27,780 nucleotides of DNA, from the IMG/VR virus record IMGVR_UViG_3300044993_000085, positions 1 through 27,780 of that record; one strand, 5' to 3'. Both the position numbers and the translations under genes were made by a program. Under the pieces are notes generated by a model. The model was given only the letters and a program-made list of their open reading frames with translations. It was not told the DNA's origin and made no database searches. This document shows, piece after piece, positions 17-27,780 of this stretch (the first letter of the stretch is position 1; every line of letters starts with the position of its first letter). Source of the stretch: a virus.

Positions 17-1141
17 ATGAAAATAATAGAAAAACTTATAAAGCATATAAAGCATAAAAAACACAAAGCACCCATTACCCAAGAAGAAAAAAAGAGAGAG
101 CTATTAAAAAGGCTAGGATATAACACAGAAGCTGACAAGGCAGAATGGTTGATTAGTGCAGAAGCTGATAAGTGGGGATGGTTGAATAGAGCAAGAGCTG
201 ATAAGGCGGGATGGTTGATTAGAGAAGGAGAATATAAAAATATGGAACTATTAGGAGAATTAAAAATAGATATGTATACGGACTATGGGGCTAATATGGC
301 GGTATATGGTATATACGAAAATATAAAGCTATTAGGCGAGTTGGGAGTGGATATGGCTAAAGATTACGGTAGCTGGACGGCACAATTTGGGGAGCCTGAG
401 AATATAAAGCTATTAGGCGAGTTTGGAGTAGATATGACAACAGAATATGGTTATCGTACGGCTCAAGATGGGGAGCCAGAAAATATAAAGCTACTAGGCA
501 AATTAGGTGTAGACATGACTACAGAATATGGGTATCGCACAGCTGAAGATGGAAAACTTGAGAATATAAAGCTATTAGGTGAGCTGGGTGTGGATATGAC
601 TACAGAATATGGGAGTTATACGGCATGCAATGGGAAACTTGAAAATATAGAGTTATTAGAAGAGTTGGGTGTGGATATGACTACAGAATACGGTAGTTAT
701 ACGGCATGCAATGGGAAACTTGAAAATATAAAGCTACTAGGTGAGCTGGGGGTAGATATGTCTAAACACTACGGTAGTAGGACGGCTGAATATGGCAAAT
801 ACAAGAATATAAAGTTACTCGGCAAATTAGGAGTTGATATGACTACAGAATACGGGAGCAATACGGCAATTCATGGGAAATATGCAAATATAAAACTATT
901 AGGCGCGTTGGGTGTAGATATGTCTCAACAATATGGTAGCTACACAGCAGTTCAAGGGAAATTGGGGAGTATTGAGTTATTAAGCAGGCTGGGAATAGAC
1001 ATGACTAAAGAAAAGGGTTTCTTGTTAGCCACCATAGCAGAAAAAGAAATAATAAATCAAATAAAAGACAAGTCTACAAAAGAGATTCTAGAAAAAATTA
1101 AAGAATTGCTAGAAAAAATAAGAAATAAAAAGTACAATTAA
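17..1141 (+). CDS. Ankyrin-like 27-residue-repeat protein, copy 1
   Basis: Function unknown; it looks like a solenoid binding protein. The 374-residue product has a basic Lys/His-rich N terminus (1-35), three 11-residue repeats (about 39-71), ten 27-residue repeats (72-341) and a charged helical C-terminal cap (342-374). Each repeat reads roughly LENIKLLGELGVDM, then TTEYGxxTAxxG. That matches the second helix and the G-x-D turn of ankyrin repeats, but the unit is about six residues shorter because the TPLHLAA stretch is reduced to TA. No signal peptide or membrane segment is visible, so a cytoplasmic product is expected unless it is exported by an unrecognised route. The ATG at 17 has an A-rich upstream and no Shine-Dalgarno. 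Two paralogues lie at 25401 and 27606. The repeat architecture is seen directly; the ankyrin relationship is inferred from motif spacing. Confidence 0.85.
   Translation: MKIIEKLIKHIKHKKHKAPITQEEKKRELLKRLGYNTEADKAEWLISAEADKWGWLNRARADKAGWLIREGEYKNMELLGELKIDMYTDYGANMAVYGIYENIKLLGELGVDMAKDYGSWTAQFGEPENIKLLGEFGVDMTTEYGYRTAQDGEPENIKLLGKLGVDMTTEYGYRTAEDGKLENIKLLGELGVDMTTEYGSYTACNGKLENIELLEELGVDMTTEYGSYTACNGKLENIKLLGELGVDMSKHYGSRTAEYGKYKNIKLLGKLGVDMTTEYGSNTAIHGKYANIKLLGALGVDMSQQYGSYTAVQGKLGSIELLSRLGIDMTKEKGFLLATIAEKEIINQIKDKSTKEILEKIKELLEKIRNKKYN
131..229 (+). repeat. Three tandem 33-bp (11-residue) repeats inside ankyrin-like copy 1
   Basis: Three head-to-tail units encode ADKAEWLISAE, ADKWGWLNRAR and ADKAGWLIREG, at 131-163, 164-196 and 197-229. 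The invariant ADK and W-L positions make an amphipathic, Trp-rich array directly in front of the 27-residue repeats. The other two paralogues lack this block. Confidence 0.85.
230..1039 (+). repeat. Ten tandem 81-bp repeats (27 residues each)
   Basis: Ten in-frame 81-bp units fill the body of the first ankyrin-like gene. Units 5 and 6 are the most alike: a 36-base stretch at 614-649 recurs exactly at 695-730, an offset of 81. The last unit is diverged (TKEKGFLLA) and acts as a cap. Differences cluster in the residue pair after YG, the pair after TA, and the residues between DM and YG. Confidence 0.9.
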
Positions 1142-6196: not shown

Positions 6197-6287
6197 AAAT
6201 AACAAACAAAGCATTATTATACTTAGTAGTCAAATAGAAACTTATAAAAGCTTATTAAATTTAGAAGAAATTCTTAAAACAATTTGA
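6171..6287 (+). CDS. Possible small ORF overlapping the portal 3' end
   Basis: A 38-codon frame (starting MVLLCRDIENNK) opens inside the last codons of the portal gene and runs 91 bases past its stop. It is preceded by GGAGGAG-type Shine-Dalgarno sequence, unusual in this window. The frame extends upstream to an ATG at 6048, but that part is only the portal gene read out of frame. The segment after the portal stop encodes an amphipathic helix-like stretch with no recognised family. Its TGA lies inside the TTGACA of the next promoter. It is real only if its translation is confirmed. Confidence 0.25.
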   Translation: MVLLCRDIENNKQSIIILSSQIETYKSLLNLEEILKTI

Positions 6288-6312
6288 CAAACCCCAAATT
6301 AATGTATAAAAT
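6284..6312 (+). promoter_or_regulatory. Putative sigma70-type promoter upstream of scaffold and capsid
   Basis: TTGACA (6284-6289) and TAAAAT (6307-6312) lie 17 bp apart, 24 bases before the scaffold ATG. The -35 box continues as TTGACAAAC, the same extended sequence as at 24293 and 24646. The position suits an extra promoter giving high capsid expression up to the terminator at 8016. Confidence 0.55.
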
Positions 6313-8700: not shown

Positions 8701-10977
8701 ATGAAAACATTAGGATTAAATATAATAACTAACCAGCAATTACCAGATGAAAAAATCAAAGATTATTTAAAGGTATTTGATGAAGTGTGTATATTGTACA
8801 ATTCATTTGAACAAAAAAAGTTTAAAAAGGTAAAAGGTGCAAAAACACAGATAGTAAGCAAAGAAAATTTTGCACATGGATGGATGATAATAGATGGAGA
8901 GGTTTACCCTAACTTTAGCAAGTTAAGACAACGAAATTTGGAGATGTCTACTACTGATTGGGTAATGTATTTGGATTCAGATGATGAGATGGATATTACA
9001 GATGTAGCATTAATAAAAAAATCAATCCAAGTTAAAGATATAACAGCTTTTGGCATTTTATATGCGTATGATTATGGCGTTTATAATGAAGTAAAATTTA
9101 CGCATCCTTCTCCTAGAGTATTTAAACGTCTTAGTTACAACTGGGGAGATAGATTTGTACATGAAAGGATAGAGTACATTGGGAAAGGTGAGGCTAAGGA
9201 ACTATTATTGGATAAGGTGATAATTAAGCACATGAGAAAAGAGCATAAACAGTCAAGTAGAAATTTACCATTATTACAAGCTTATTCTTCTTATAAAGAA
9301 CATAAAGATCCATTAACGCTTTACTACATTGGGAGAGAATATGCTCATAGTGATGCGCAACGTTCTGAATATTGGCTAAAGGAAGCTTTAAAACTTGCAA
9401 CTGAACCATTTATAATAAGATCAGCACATGATTTATTATCTACTATATATTTTGAAAATGGGGATTTATTAAAAGCAATTGAGCATGCTCAAGCAATTAC
9501 AGCTAAAGATCCTGAAGATATTATAGGGTTACTAATGGAAGCGAAGCTATACTTAGCAATAGGGTGGTACGAACAAAGCGAAGTAAAGTGTGAAAAATTG
9601 TATAATAGATTTATACAAAATCACGAATCAATACAGCACTTAAAATTAAATGTAGAAGGGGTAAACATTGAAACTATACGAGATCAAATTATATTTATTG
9701 CGGCAGGATTGGCAAAAGTAAAAAAGCTATACGATGAAGTTATTACTTTATTATCATCTATTAATAGAACTGGGGATTTGGATATAGTTATAACAGAAAT
9801 GCAATATTTAAAAGAATCAGAGGCTAAAGCAAAAATACAATCAGAAATAGCATACAAGCTAGAAGATCCTAAACAAGCGTTTGACACACAAACTAAATTC
9901 ACACAGATTTATATTGACACAATACAAAGACTAAAAAAACAGACAAAAAGGAAATCAAGTGTTGTTATAGTAGTCACTCAGAATTTTGAAGAGTGGGATG
10001 AAGACACAATAATTAATAAAGGGGGAGGTGGAAGTGAAACTGCAGTCGTGGAAATGGCAAAGAGAATGAGACAAGACTTTGACGAGGTTATTATTTATGC
10101 AAATCCAGATAAAGAAAAAGTCATTAATGGGGTGACATATAAGAAATTAAATGAAATAGATTTTTCTGATGAGTTTGATGTTTTTATAGGGTTTAGAGAT
10201 GTAGAAATATTTCATAACCGAAAAATAAAAGCAAATAAGAAATTGTTATGGTTACAAGATGTAGGACGTGTTGAAAGGTACACACCAGAGCTTTTAAGTG
10301 AAGTTGATAAAATAATAGTGCTATCAAAATATCATCGAAGTACATTAGCACATGTACCAGAAGAGAAATTTTTTTATACAACAAACGGAATTAATGTAGA
10401 GTTAATAGAAGAAGTTGAAAAGACTATTACAGAAGATAGAGAATTAAACAAGATGCTTTACTGTAGTTCTGCAGACCGAGGACTTGAGGGTTTATGTGAA
10501 ATGAAAAAAATATATAATTTTAATGCAGAATTTGAATGGTATTATGGATGGAATTCCTGGAATACAAAAATTCAAACAAAAATTGATTTTAGGCAAAAAA
10601 TAGAAGATTTATTAAAAGAAAGCGGTATAGTAGCAAAAGGTAGAGTATCCAAAAAAGAGTTATACAAAGCAATGTTTACAGCAGATTTTCTAACATATCC
10701 ACTAATAGGGAGGGCAGAAACAAGTTGTATAGTGGTAATGGAAGCTCAAGCATGTGGGCTAATACCTATAACCACAGGGATAACAGCACTAGAGGAGACA
10801 CAGCAATGGGGACTTAAGGTTGATATTGAAAATTATGGTGAAGCTTTGTATAATATTATTGAACAGAATACAGAGTCTAATAATAAAAAAATGATGCGAA
10901 AAGACATGATGGCATGGGCGAGAGAGAAGTTTAACTGGGATAATGTATATAAACAGTGGTTAAAAGAATTAAAATGA
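8701..10977 (+). CDS. Two-domain glycosyltransferase (GT2-like + TPR + GT4-like)
   Basis: A 758-residue fusion. Residues 1-~190 form a GT-A domain like family GT2, with the metal/nucleotide-sugar signature YLDSDDEM (90-97) and WGDRFVHERIEY further on. Residues ~200-410 are helical repeats resembling TPRs (LYYIGREYAHSD, then KAIEHAQAITAKDPED). Residues ~417-758 form a GT-B domain like family GT4, with a glycine loop KGGGGSETA (about 440-448), TTNGIN, and the E-x7-E pair E673/E681 in AETSCIVVMEAQACG. It should transfer two sugars, or build a disaccharide, using activated sugar donors. Placement among the structural genes suggests decoration of a virion protein. Modification of host surface glycans is an alternative. 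Both catalytic motifs look intact. Confidence 0.85.
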   Translation: MKTLGLNIITNQQLPDEKIKDYLKVFDEVCILYNSFEQKKFKKVKGAKTQIVSKENFAHGWMIIDGEVYPNFSKLRQRNLEMSTTDWVMYLDSDDEMDITDVALIKKSIQVKDITAFGILYAYDYGVYNEVKFTHPSPRVFKRLSYNWGDRFVHERIEYIGKGEAKELLLDKVIIKHMRKEHKQSSRNLPLLQAYSSYKEHKDPLTLYYIGREYAHSDAQRSEYWLKEALKLATEPFIIRSAHDLLSTIYFENGDLLKAIEHAQAITAKDPEDIIGLLMEAKLYLAIGWYEQSEVKCEKLYNRFIQNHESIQHLKLNVEGVNIETIRDQIIFIAAGLAKVKKLYDEVITLLSSINRTGDLDIVITEMQYLKESEAKAKIQSEIAYKLEDPKQAFDTQTKFTQIYIDTIQRLKKQTKRKSSVVIVVTQNFEEWDEDTIINKGGGGSETAVVEMAKRMRQDFDEVIIYANPDKEKVINGVTYKKLNEIDFSDEFDVFIGFRDVEIFHNRKIKANKKLLWLQDVGRVERYTPELLSEVDKIIVLSKYHRSTLAHVPEEKFFYTTNGINVELIEEVEKTITEDRELNKMLYCSSADRGLEGLCEMKKIYNFNAEFEWYYGWNSWNTKIQTKIDFRQKIEDLLKESGIVAKGRVSKKELYKAMFTADFLTYPLIGRAETSCIVVMEAQACGLIPITTGITALEETQQWGLKVDIENYGEALYNIIEQNTESNNKKMMRKDMMAWAREKFNWDNVYKQWLKELK

Positions 10978-18655: not shown

Positions 18656-19585
18656 TTATTTTTTACCTAGCAATAGTTTAATATATTTCCATAGCCAAAT
18701 AAACAAATTAAAAGGTTTTTTGTTGTCAATTACTTCCTGTTTAGGGTTTAAAAGCTCACTTATTTTTTCATCTAAATCAACAACATTATTATTTTGAGAA
18801 TTATCTTCTGTGGTTTCGTTGTCATTGTTAACTGTGGTTTCGTTGTTATTGTTAACTGCGGTTTGTTGATTATTAGTTAATTCTTCATTTCTATATCTTA
18901 ACTCTACAGCTAAAAAAGCATGAGGAATGTTATTTTTAAAACTATATTCAGTCATTAAGAAACCATCTTTTTTGTATTTTGTAACTATTTCAGTATTTTT
19001 AGAAAAAACCGCTTTTTTTTCATGTGTAATAATATCATACAAATAAACGTCGCAGTCTGGTGTATTACTTTCCTCATGTTCAACAAAGCCAGATTTCCAA
19101 TTATTACCGTTTAAAATTTCATAAACTCGGGCTCTTATTTTGTAAAAATCTAAACCGCCTGGGCATCCGGTAGGTGCATAACTATAATGAGGCATTATCA
19201 AATCCATATTTGTTTTATCCCATCCATAAGTATTAAATAAGCTAGCAATTAACTGTGCAGAGGATTCATAGAGGCTATTGGTACGCACACTATCGCCAGG
19301 ATTCCCATCATCTTGATGCTCAATTCCTATGCTGTAAAGATTAGCTTCCCAATTACCTGCATGAAAAGCAGTATCCTTATCTAAAACGTATTGTTCAATA
19401 TTGCCATTTTTAAATATGGCATAATGTGCAGATACATTGCTATTGGGATTATTAAACCAATTATAAAGACTTTCACCTTTTCCATTATAAGTGTGAACTA
19501 TGACATATTCAGGTTTATTAATTTTTTGCCTACCTTTTTGGAAATTATGTTGAATAATTTTTTTAGTTATAGATAAATTTGACAT
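18656..19585 (-). CDS. N-acetylmuramoyl-L-alanine amidase endolysin
   Basis: A 309-residue zinc amidase (Amidase_2/PGRP fold) that cuts the muramic acid-peptide bond of peptidoglycan. The catalytic domain spans about 20-155. Zinc-ligand candidates are H31 (YVIVHTYNG), H133 and C141 (HYSYAPTGCPGG). SAHYAIFKNG, TAFHAG and SIGIEH are family hallmarks. No signal peptide is seen, so release through a holin is expected. After ~240 comes an Asn/Thr-rich repetitive linker (TTVNN units), then a hydrophobic, basic C-terminal stretch (FNLFIWLWKYIKLLLGKK) that could insert into membrane. The gene is preceded by AGAGG eight bases before the ATG, one of few good Shine-Dalgarno sequences here, and by a hairpin leader. 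Confidence 0.9.
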   Translation of the reverse strand: MSNLSITKKIIQHNFQKGRQKINKPEYVIVHTYNGKGESLYNWFNNPNSNVSAHYAIFKNGNIEQYVLDKDTAFHAGNWEANLYSIGIEHQDDGNPGDSVRTNSLYESSAQLIASLFNTYGWDKTNMDLIMPHYSYAPTGCPGGLDFYKIRARVYEILNGNNWKSGFVEHEESNTPDCDVYLYDIITHEKKAVFSKNTEIVTKYKKDGFLMTEYSFKNNIPHAFLAVELRYRNEELTNNQQTAVNNNNETTVNNDNETTEDNSQNNNVVDLDEKISELLNPKQEVIDNKKPFNLFIWLWKYIKLLLGKK

Positions 19586-24292: not shown

Positions 24293-24321
24293 TTGACAAA
24301 CGAAGAAAAAAGTTAGATAAT
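24293..24321 (+). promoter_or_regulatory. Sigma70-type promoter before the 92-residue unknown gene
   Basis: TTGACA (24293-24298) and GATAAT (24316-24321) at exactly 17 bp, with the extended -35 ACTTGACAAACG shared with the promoter at 24646. An imperfect inverted repeat (TTAGAT ... ATCTTAA) straddles the -10 region and start site, echoing the operator downstream. Confidence 0.7.
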
Positions 24322-24645: not shown

Positions 24646-24674
24646 TTGACAAACGCTAAAATATATATTATAAT
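24646..24674 (+). promoter_or_regulatory. Full-consensus sigma70 promoter of the recombination/ankyrin operon
   Basis: TTGACA (24646-24651) and TATAAT (24669-24674) are perfect consensus boxes separated by exactly 17 bp. The predicted start falls near 24681, inside the palindrome at 24679-24693. A 95-base leader precedes the ERF gene. Confidence 0.85.
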
Positions 24675-25400: not shown

Positions 25401-26507
25401 ATGACAGAAAAAGAAAAAATTAATAAATTAAAGCAAATCATGCGGCAAAAGAAAAAAAAGTTATGTAAAAAGTATAATGTAAATGTAGATACAATACACG
25501 GAAAAAATGTATTAATGAACGGCAAAATTGCGAATATTCAATTATTAGGCGAGTTGGGTGTAGATATGTCTACAGAATATGGTTGTCGTACAGCTGTATA
25601 TGGAAAACTTGAAAATATAGAGCTATTAGGCAAGTTGGGAGTGGATATGGCTACAAAATATGGGTATTATACAGCTGAAGATGGGAAACTTGAAAATATA
25701 AAGCTATTAGGAAAGTTGGGTGTGGGTATGGCTACAATGTACGGAAGCAATACGGCAATTCACGGAAAATATGAAAATATAAAGTTATTAGGCAAGCTAG
25801 GAGTGGATATGACAACAGAACATGGGTATCGTACAGCTGAAAATGGAAAACTTAAAAATATAAAGTTACTAAGCAAGTTTGGGGTGGATATGACTAAACC
25901 ATACGGGAGCGATACGGCAATTCACGGGAAATATGAAAACATAGAGCTACTAGGCGAGTTAGGTGTGGATATGACCACAGAACATGGGTATCTTACGGCA
26001 CGTTGGGGCAAACTCGAAAATATAAAGTTATTAGGCAAGCTAGGAGTAGATATGACAACAGAACATGGGTATTGTACAGCTGCATATGGAAAACTTGAAA
26101 ACATAGAGCTATTAGGCAAGTTGGGTGTGGATATGGCTACAAAATATGGTTATCGTACAGCTGAAAAGGGAAAACTTGAAAATATAAAACTATTAGGCGA
26201 GTTGGGTGTAGACATAAATAAACAATATGGGCACTATATGGCAATTTATGGCAATTATGAAAACATAAAGCTACTAGGAAAGTTAGGTGTAGACATAACT
26301 AAACCATACGGTAGTAGGACGGCTGAATATGGAAAACTTGAAAATATAGAGCTACTGGGAAAGTTAGGTGTAGACATGACCACAGAATATGGGTATTTAT
26401 TAGCTAGCGAAGCGGACACTGAAATAATAAAACAATTACAAACTAAAGAAATGACACTTGAAGAAATTGTTAAAAGATTAAAAAAAAGCCAAAAATTAAG
26501 AATTTAA
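25401..26507 (+). CDS. Ankyrin-like 27-residue-repeat protein, copy 2
   Basis: A 368-residue paralogue of the protein at 17-1141. A basic coiled N terminus (EKINKLKQIMRQKKKKL, 5-21) is followed by eleven 27-residue repeats (42-338) and a helical cap ending RLKKSQKLRI. The N terminus resembles that of copy 3 (27606), not copy 1, so copies 2 and 3 are closer relatives. The repeat core LENIKLLGKLGVDM is nearly invariant. Variation lies at TTEY/TTEH/ATKY/TKPY and at the residues around TA. It starts one base after the ERF stop and precedes the exonuclease, so it is co-expressed with recombination functions. Its binding partner is unknown. Confidence 0.85.
   Translation: MTEKEKINKLKQIMRQKKKKLCKKYNVNVDTIHGKNVLMNGKIANIQLLGELGVDMSTEYGCRTAVYGKLENIELLGKLGVDMATKYGYYTAEDGKLENIKLLGKLGVGMATMYGSNTAIHGKYENIKLLGKLGVDMTTEHGYRTAENGKLKNIKLLSKFGVDMTKPYGSDTAIHGKYENIELLGELGVDMTTEHGYLTARWGKLENIKLLGKLGVDMTTEHGYCTAAYGKLENIELLGKLGVDMATKYGYRTAEKGKLENIKLLGELGVDINKQYGHYMAIYGNYENIKLLGKLGVDITKPYGSRTAEYGKLENIELLGKLGVDMTTEYGYLLASEADTEIIKQLQTKEMTLEEIVKRLKKSQKLRI
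25524..26414 (+). repeat. Eleven tandem 81-bp repeats (27 residues each)
   Basis: In-frame 81-bp units form the body of ankyrin-like copy 2. A 31-base run starting at 25774 recurs exactly at 26017, three units away. A 26-base stretch at 26307-26332 is identical to 770-795 in copy 1, about 25 kb away. The last unit ends in LLAS, a cap similar to the LLAT end of copy 1. Confidence 0.9.
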
Positions 26508-27605: not shown

Positions 27606-27780
27606 ATGGCAGAAAAAGGTAAAATTAACAAATTAAAACAGATCATACAAAAAACGATAAAAAAGCTGAGCGAAAAGTATAATGCAGGTATTAATATATT
27701 ATACGGGAAAAAAGATGTAGTCAAAAGCGTCAAACTCGAAAACATCAAGTTACTAGGCGAGTTGGGAGTGGATATGGCTA
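27606..27780 (+). CDS. Ankyrin-like 27-residue-repeat protein, copy 3 (partial, runs off the window)
   Basis: An open frame from ATG 27606 to the window end (58 complete codons). The N terminus MAEKGKINKLKQIIQK aligns with MTEKEKINKLKQIMRQ of copy 2. It is followed by a linker (YNAGINILYGKK) matching YNVNVDTIHGKN, and then the first repeat core LENIKLLGELGVDMA. It is therefore a full-length-type start of a third family member; repeat number and end are unknown. The spacing of five bases from the HTH gene implies the same operon. Confidence 0.85.
   Translation, partial: MAEKGKINKLKQIIQKTIKKLSEKYNAGINILYGKKDVVKSVKLENIKLLGELGVDMA

What the first reader, a model, noticed from the sequence alone, without database searches (positions are those of the whole stretch)
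17..1141. A phage family of proteins built from unusually short, 27-residue ankyrin-like repeats
Seen: ten repeats here and eleven at 25401, each exactly 27 residues, with a rigid core (ENIKLLGELGVDM) and a few variable positions. Known: canonical ankyrin repeats are about 33 residues, and phage-borne ankyrin proteins (for example in Ankyphages of sponge symbionts and Wolbachia phage WO) have been linked to eukaryote interaction. Inference: these are shortened ankyrin solenoids with the first helix trimmed, forming a scaffold with a variable face. A 27-residue phage family with several paralogues appears to be a distinct architecture.
Basis: partly seen in the sequence, partly recalled or inferred. 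Interest (0 to 1): 0.75.

Follow-up and report, generated by a model that had tools for sequence, protein, structure and literature searches.

The report
Hairpin-less ankyrin-like phage repeat proteins
A small AT-rich virus of bacteria carries three sister genes for proteins built from exact 27-residue helical repeats, which look like ankyrin repeats that have lost their hairpin and are probably modular protein-binding scaffolds with a fast-changing binding face.

Summary
The gene at 17-1141 has ten tandem 27-residue repeats, the gene at 25401-26507 has eleven, and a third gene (from 27606) is cut off by the contig end. The "ankyrin" reading is half right. By sequence, the array's only listed relatives among solved proteins are ankyrins/DARPins. 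The proposed anatomy is wrong: AlphaFold2 (5-repeat unit, pLDDT 97.5, all five models agreeing) shows the first helix intact at 9 residues. What is missing is the beta-hairpin finger, shrunk to a 6-7-residue loop. TPLH, the hairpin and the 30-34-residue length, all defining ankyrin features, are absent, and Foldseek finds no ankyrin and nothing convincing in the PDB or BFVD (best: weak TAL-effector superhelices). I call it an ankyrin-derived, hairpin-less alpha-solenoid: a new variant. Core positions are under strong purifying selection; five positions on one face of helix 1 vary freely, are Tyr-rich and net acidic, like a protein-binding face. Gene order and a perfect sigma70-type promoter put the second gene, and probably the third, in the early replication/recombination operon. 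Most likely they are intracellular binders of host proteins; the target is unknown. I found no relatives in 2.9 million viral contigs, isolate phages, plasmids or sampled genomes.

The parts
17..1141 (+). Repeat protein A, 374 aa: basic N-terminal region, ten 27-residue repeats (197-1006), helical C-cap (1007-1138)
126..224 (+). Three 11-residue (33-bp) repeats ahead of the array in A; the last 28 bp overlap its first, degenerate 27-mer
   Evidence: TRF period 33, 3.0 copies; no relative of the N-terminal 60 residues in the PDB
197..1006 (+). Array of ten 27-residue repeats (81-bp units)
24293..24321 (+). sigma70-type promoter-like site (11/12), shares TTGACAAAC with the site at 24646
24646..24674 (+). 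Perfect sigma70 consensus (TTGACA-17-TATAAT) upstream of the ERF gene and repeat gene B; likely early promoter
25401..26507 (+). Repeat protein B, 368 aa: basic N-terminal helix, eleven 27-residue repeats (25491-26381), helical C-cap (26382-26504); starts 2 nt after the ERF stop codon
25491..26381 (+). Array of eleven 27-residue repeats; predicted hairpin-less alpha-solenoid
27606..27780 (+). Repeat protein C, third paralogue, truncated by the contig end inside its first repeats

Best explanation
The three genes encode ankyrin-derived, hairpin-less alpha-solenoids used as modular protein-binding scaffolds. Each 27-residue unit is helix 1 (positions 2-10), a 2-residue turn, helix 2 (13-22) and a 6-7-residue loop in place of the ankyrin beta-hairpin. 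The conserved small positions G4, T7, A8 and G11 lie on the packed face of helix 1; the hydrophobic residues of helix 2 and the LGVDM loop form the core. Positions 2, 5, 6, 9 and 10 line up on the opposite face of helix 1 and, across 10-11 repeats, make a continuous Tyr/Glu/Arg/Ser/Asn-rich surface that binds a partner. The phage makes B, and probably C, early from a sigma70-type promoter together with its recombination/replication genes. The paralogues with different faces would capture different or variable host proteins inside the infected cell (takeover or counter-defence). Shown by sequence or computation: repeats, paralogues, purifying/diversifying pattern, gene order. Predicted: fold. 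Inferred: ankyrin ancestry, protein binding, early timing. Unproven: the target.
For: Fold: AF2 of a 5-repeat unit with 13 repeat-window rows gives pLDDT 97.5 and pTM 0.89; the five models score 95.5-97.5, ten helices, no strand. Full-length B gives pLDDT 89.7 with the same helix pattern. Ankyrin ancestry: the profile's 60 best of 169 PDB sequence hits are ankyrins or DARPin chains, best E 2e-18, with about 6 residues of gap per repeat before the A-x-x-G motif; phmmer best hit is a consensus ankyrin, E 1e-12. Selection: dN/dS about 0.04 at core positions, 0.69 at the five variable ones; in close repeat pairs pN/pS is 1.34 at the variable positions against 0.26 elsewhere. Variability is on one face of helix 1 (permutation p 0.015), composition Tyr 18, Glu 16, Arg 9, Ser 9, Asn 8, Asp 7 of 105. 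Operon: perfect promoter at 24646, ERF immediately upstream of B, exonuclease downstream.
Against: No partner or experiment. In full-length B only one of five AF2 models was confident (the others 56-64). E-values with repetitive queries are inflated: Pfam Ank_4 passes its cut-off for B but so does an unrelated ribosomal family, A has no ankyrin hit at all, and the six-frame Ank_4 search did not ring in this genome. The ankyrin resemblance could be convergence of a G-x-L-E-x-I-x-L-L repeat. pN/pS above 1 rests on few, non-independent repeat pairs.
Confidence: 0.58

Rival explanations
1. Accessory scaffold for phage proteins: the solenoids bind the phage's own recombination/replication proteins (ERF, exonuclease, helicase) or ParB-like protein rather than host proteins.
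For: B lies directly between ERF and exonuclease, C after the exonuclease, A before the ParB-like gene.
Against: Diversification of the face among repeats and paralogues is more than a fixed internal partner needs; none of the 45 terminase-related phage records carries such a protein, though many are fragments.
Confidence: 0.15
2. Sequence-specific nucleic-acid binding, TAL-effector-like: a superhelix that reads bases with the residue pair at the end of helix 1 (positions 9-10).
For: Best Foldseek hits of full-length B are DNA-binding TAL-effector structures (E 1e-3, probability 0.99). Repeats differ mainly at a few positions, with a pair next to a conserved G-K; some pair types recur (IH three times; VY, ED, CN, EY twice).
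Against: TM-scores are low (0.2 full length, at most 0.47 for the 5-repeat unit) and E is 1 or worse for the unit. The 60 best profile hits in the PDB are all ankyrins, none a TAL effector. The variable face is net acidic (23 Glu/Asp against 13 Arg/Lys) and the array of A has charge -16.
Confidence: 0.08
3. Eukaryote-interacting ankyrin protein as in ankyphages of sponge symbionts or phage WO of Wolbachia.
For: Phage-borne ankyrin-like proteins with several paralogues; AT-rich genome.
Against: Proteins lack the ankyrin hairpin and TPLH; gene B sits in the phage replication/recombination operon; I noticed no signal peptide or membrane anchor (by eye only); nothing else in the window is eukaryote-like; the host is unknown.
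Confidence: 0.08
4. No selected function: a selfish or drifting minisatellite, or an assembly artefact.
For: Tandem 81-bp DNA repeats; the contig ends inside one.
Against: Synonymous sites are near saturation (pS about 0.6) while the core is frozen (dN/dS about 0.04); reading frames are intact, with conserved N- and C-terminal caps.
Confidence: 0.03

Closest known systems
Ankyrin repeats / DARPins (Pfam Ank, Ank_2, Ank_4)
   Same: Helix-turn-helix unit; A-x-x-G turn and G-[AV]-D motif; helix 2 L-E-x-I-x-L-L; variable binding residues on the helix-1 face; best sequence relatives in the PDB
   Different: 27 instead of 30-34 residues; no beta-hairpin; no TPLH; G4/T7 inside helix 1; fold not matched to any ankyrin by Foldseek
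TAL-effector type repeats
   Same: Two-helix repeats that vary mainly at a few positions near the end of helix 1; only natural repeat family among the top Foldseek hits
   Different: 27 against 34 residues; low TM; no TAL effector among the 60 best sequence hits; acidic variable face
Phage ankyrin proteins (ankyphages; phage WO)
   Same: Ankyrin-type repeat proteins in phages, often several (PMC9203015)
   Different: Those are ankyrin-repeat proteins proposed to act on eukaryotic hosts; here the unit is 27 residues, in an SU10-type phage of unknown host, next to recombination genes

Membership tests
Ankyrin repeat | Helix-turn-helix unit | tested here: met
   AF2: helices at 2-10 and 13-21/22 of each unit
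Ankyrin repeat | Repeat length 30-34 residues (PMC11514114) | tested here: not met
   Exactly 27 in all 19 spacings
Ankyrin repeat | Beta-hairpin connecting repeats, L-shaped cross-section | tested here: not met
   DSSP shows no strand; 6-7-residue coil between helix 2 and the next helix 1
Ankyrin repeat | TPLH motif | tested here: not met
   Helix 1 reads [EDQK]-[YH]-G-x-x-T-A-x-x
Ankyrin repeat | Conserved Gly after helix 1 and after helix 2 | tested here: met
   G11 21/21, G23 20/21
Ankyrin repeat | Profile score above Pfam cut-off | tested here: inconclusive
   B: Ank_4 32.4 bits against 22.7, but no single stretch passes and an unrelated family also passes; A: none; six-frame search silent
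Ankyrin repeat | Best sequence relatives among solved proteins are ankyrins | tested here: met
   All 60 listed profile hits
TAL-effector-like repeats | 33-35-residue repeats with a repeat-variable di-residue | tested here: not met
   27 residues; five to six variable positions
TAL-effector-like repeats | Superhelical fold similar to TAL effectors | tested here: inconclusive
   E 1e-3, probability 0.99 but TM 0.22 full length; E 1.3 or worse for the 5-repeat unit
TAL-effector-like repeats | Sequence-specific DNA binding | not testable with these tools
   Needs EMSA or SELEX; acidic variable face speaks against it

The most novel reading that the evidence does not exclude
A distinct alpha-solenoid subfold outside the eight described ones (ANK, HEAT, ARM, TPR, PPR, PUF, TAL, Sel1): a 27-residue, two-helix, loop-only repeat that a phage uses as a natural, rapidly diversifying, Tyr-rich binder scaffold against bacterial (defence) proteins.
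Probability: 0.27. Interest if true: 0.75.

Novelty: new variant of a known kind. Interest (0 to 1): 0.52.

Why it matters
If real, this is an unusually compact two-helix solenoid repeat, with conserved and variable positions already separated by evolution: a natural small-unit counterpart of the DARPin. It would show how an ankyrin can lose its hairpin and still stack, and would give a testable set of phage intracellular binders whose targets may be host defence proteins.

Tried and rejected
Relatives: tblastn with A and B in isolate phages gave none, with B in plasmids one weak hit (Geminocystis, 27%, annotated PD40; taken as chance, not opened). The genome-contig scan gave one Planococcus locus; the repeat profile finds no repeats in it and its reading frame looks like a type I restriction subunit, so rejected. 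Degenerate scans of viral contigs with B, with the A/B alignment and with a single-motif 27-spaced pattern: nothing real. One pattern was mis-spaced and void. The correct two-repeat 27-spaced pattern: 0 in viral contigs; the same pattern with 33-residue spacing as control: 9 loci, six of which read as ankyrins on translation. 45 phages sharing the terminase: none. 398 Bacillota genomes: none, but host phylum unknown and no positive control there. The MCP scan for relatives found none. Literature: no paper on 27-residue ankyrin-type repeats found; a TALE-inspired repeat screen covered only 30-43 residues (PMC5472282). The 'first helix trimmed' reading, suggested by naive alignment, is rejected by the structure models. 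PADLOC and NCBIfam gave nothing useful; no Rfam family or tRNA in the window.

Full report
Setting. The window is an entire IMG/VR virus record, linear, 27,780 bases, 31% G+C. It carries SU10-type head genes (portal, major capsid, adaptor), a large terminase 30-44% identical to those of many phages, an amidase, a DnaB-type helicase, ERF annealing protein, a YqaJ/RecE-like exonuclease and a ParB-like protein. I found no close relative: the portal has one weak isolate hit and the capsid scan none. The host is unknown; only 2 of 33 starts have a Shine-Dalgarno-like sequence.

Observation. Both arrays are as described, ten and eleven units of exactly 27 residues, far beyond chance (17 pattern matches against 0 in 100 shuffles). 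The two proteins share a helical C-cap (42% identity). A third gene from 27606 shares the N-terminus of B (55%) and is cut off by the contig end inside its repeats. Because the right end stops in repeat DNA identical to part of A, and A begins 16 bases from the left end, it is likely (inference) that C and A are neighbours in the intact genome. The three genes would then form one cluster around ERF, exonuclease and the ParB-like gene.

Anatomy. A 5-repeat unit predicted with 13 rows of repeat windows folds with pLDDT 97.5 and agreement of all five models. Full-length B gives the same pattern with pLDDT 89.7 in the best model, but the other four models were poor. Each unit has helix 1 at positions 2-10, a two-residue turn, helix 2 at 13-21/22, and a 6-7-residue loop. 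No strand is assigned.

Relationship. The profile of the arrays finds 169 PDB sequences at E up to 1; the 60 listed are all ankyrins or DARPin chains, best 2e-18, with about six extra residues per repeat in the ankyrin. phmmer with A agrees (1e-12). These values are inflated by repetition, and Pfam is equivocal, so I treat ankyrin ancestry as likely, not proven. Three defining features of ankyrin repeats as given in PMC11514114 (length 30-34, beta-hairpin, TPLH) were tested and not met, so I do not file it as an ankyrin repeat. By fold, no PDB or BFVD entry matches well. Full-length B is nearest to TAL-effector superhelices (E 1e-3, TM 0.22), the unit to the same at E 1.3 or worse and TM up to 0.47, and BFVD gives nothing below E 0.49.

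Selection and binding face. Between repeats, synonymous differences are near saturation (pS about 0.6) while core positions hardly change (dN/dS 0.04). Positions 2, 5, 6, 9 and 10 change freely (0.69), and among the 20 closest repeat pairs pN exceeds pS there (1.34) but not elsewhere (0.26). The pairs are not independent, so I read this as relaxed to diversifying selection. These positions fall on one face of helix 1 (permutation p 0.015), opposite G4, T7, A8 and G11. Their composition, Tyr-rich with Glu, Arg, Ser, Asn and Asp and net acidic, resembles protein-binding paratopes (general knowledge) and speaks against nucleic acid. Some modules recur in both proteins in a different order (SN/SD-IH, YR-E[DNK], SR-EY), which suggests shuffling of units.

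Expression. A perfect TTGACA-17-TATAAT lies at 24646, the only 12/12 site with 17-base spacing in the window, and an 11/12 site with the same TTGACAAAC start lies at 24293. Downstream come ERF, B two bases after its stop, exonuclease, a small HTH protein and C. Early expression is the natural inference.

Mechanism. The best account is a stack of short two-helix units whose exposed helix-1 faces form a long variable surface, made early, that captures proteins in the infected bacterium. Host takeover or counter-defence is my preferred role because of timing, paralogy and diversification. A scaffold for the phage's own recombination proteins is the main rival; nucleic-acid binding and eukaryote interaction are less likely.

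Distribution. No relative was found in isolate phages, plasmids, the viral collection, terminase-related phages or 398 Bacillota genomes. The pattern method did recover ordinary 33-residue ankyrins as a control.

Noticed in passing
126-224: Three 11-residue repeats ([ER]-A-D-K-x-x-W-L-type) ahead of the 27-mer array of protein A, overlapping its first, degenerate unit; no PDB relative.
   Followed up: partly
24293-24321, 24646-24674, 6284-6312: Three promoter-like sites share TTGACAAAC; the one at 24646 is a perfect sigma70 consensus.
   Followed up: partly
window, 33 gene starts: Almost no Shine-Dalgarno sequences (2 of 33), although promoters are sigma70-like; may hint at the host group.
   Followed up: partly
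8701-10977: Large protein with two glycosyltransferase-like regions inside the head/structural module of a small phage.
   Followed up: no
18808-18880: 24-bp tandem repeat (3 copies, Asn/Thr-rich linker) within the amidase endolysin gene.
   Followed up: no
27606-27780: Contig ends in repeat DNA whose last 20 bases recur at about position 340, so the record is probably broken at the C-A repeat cluster.
   Followed up: partly
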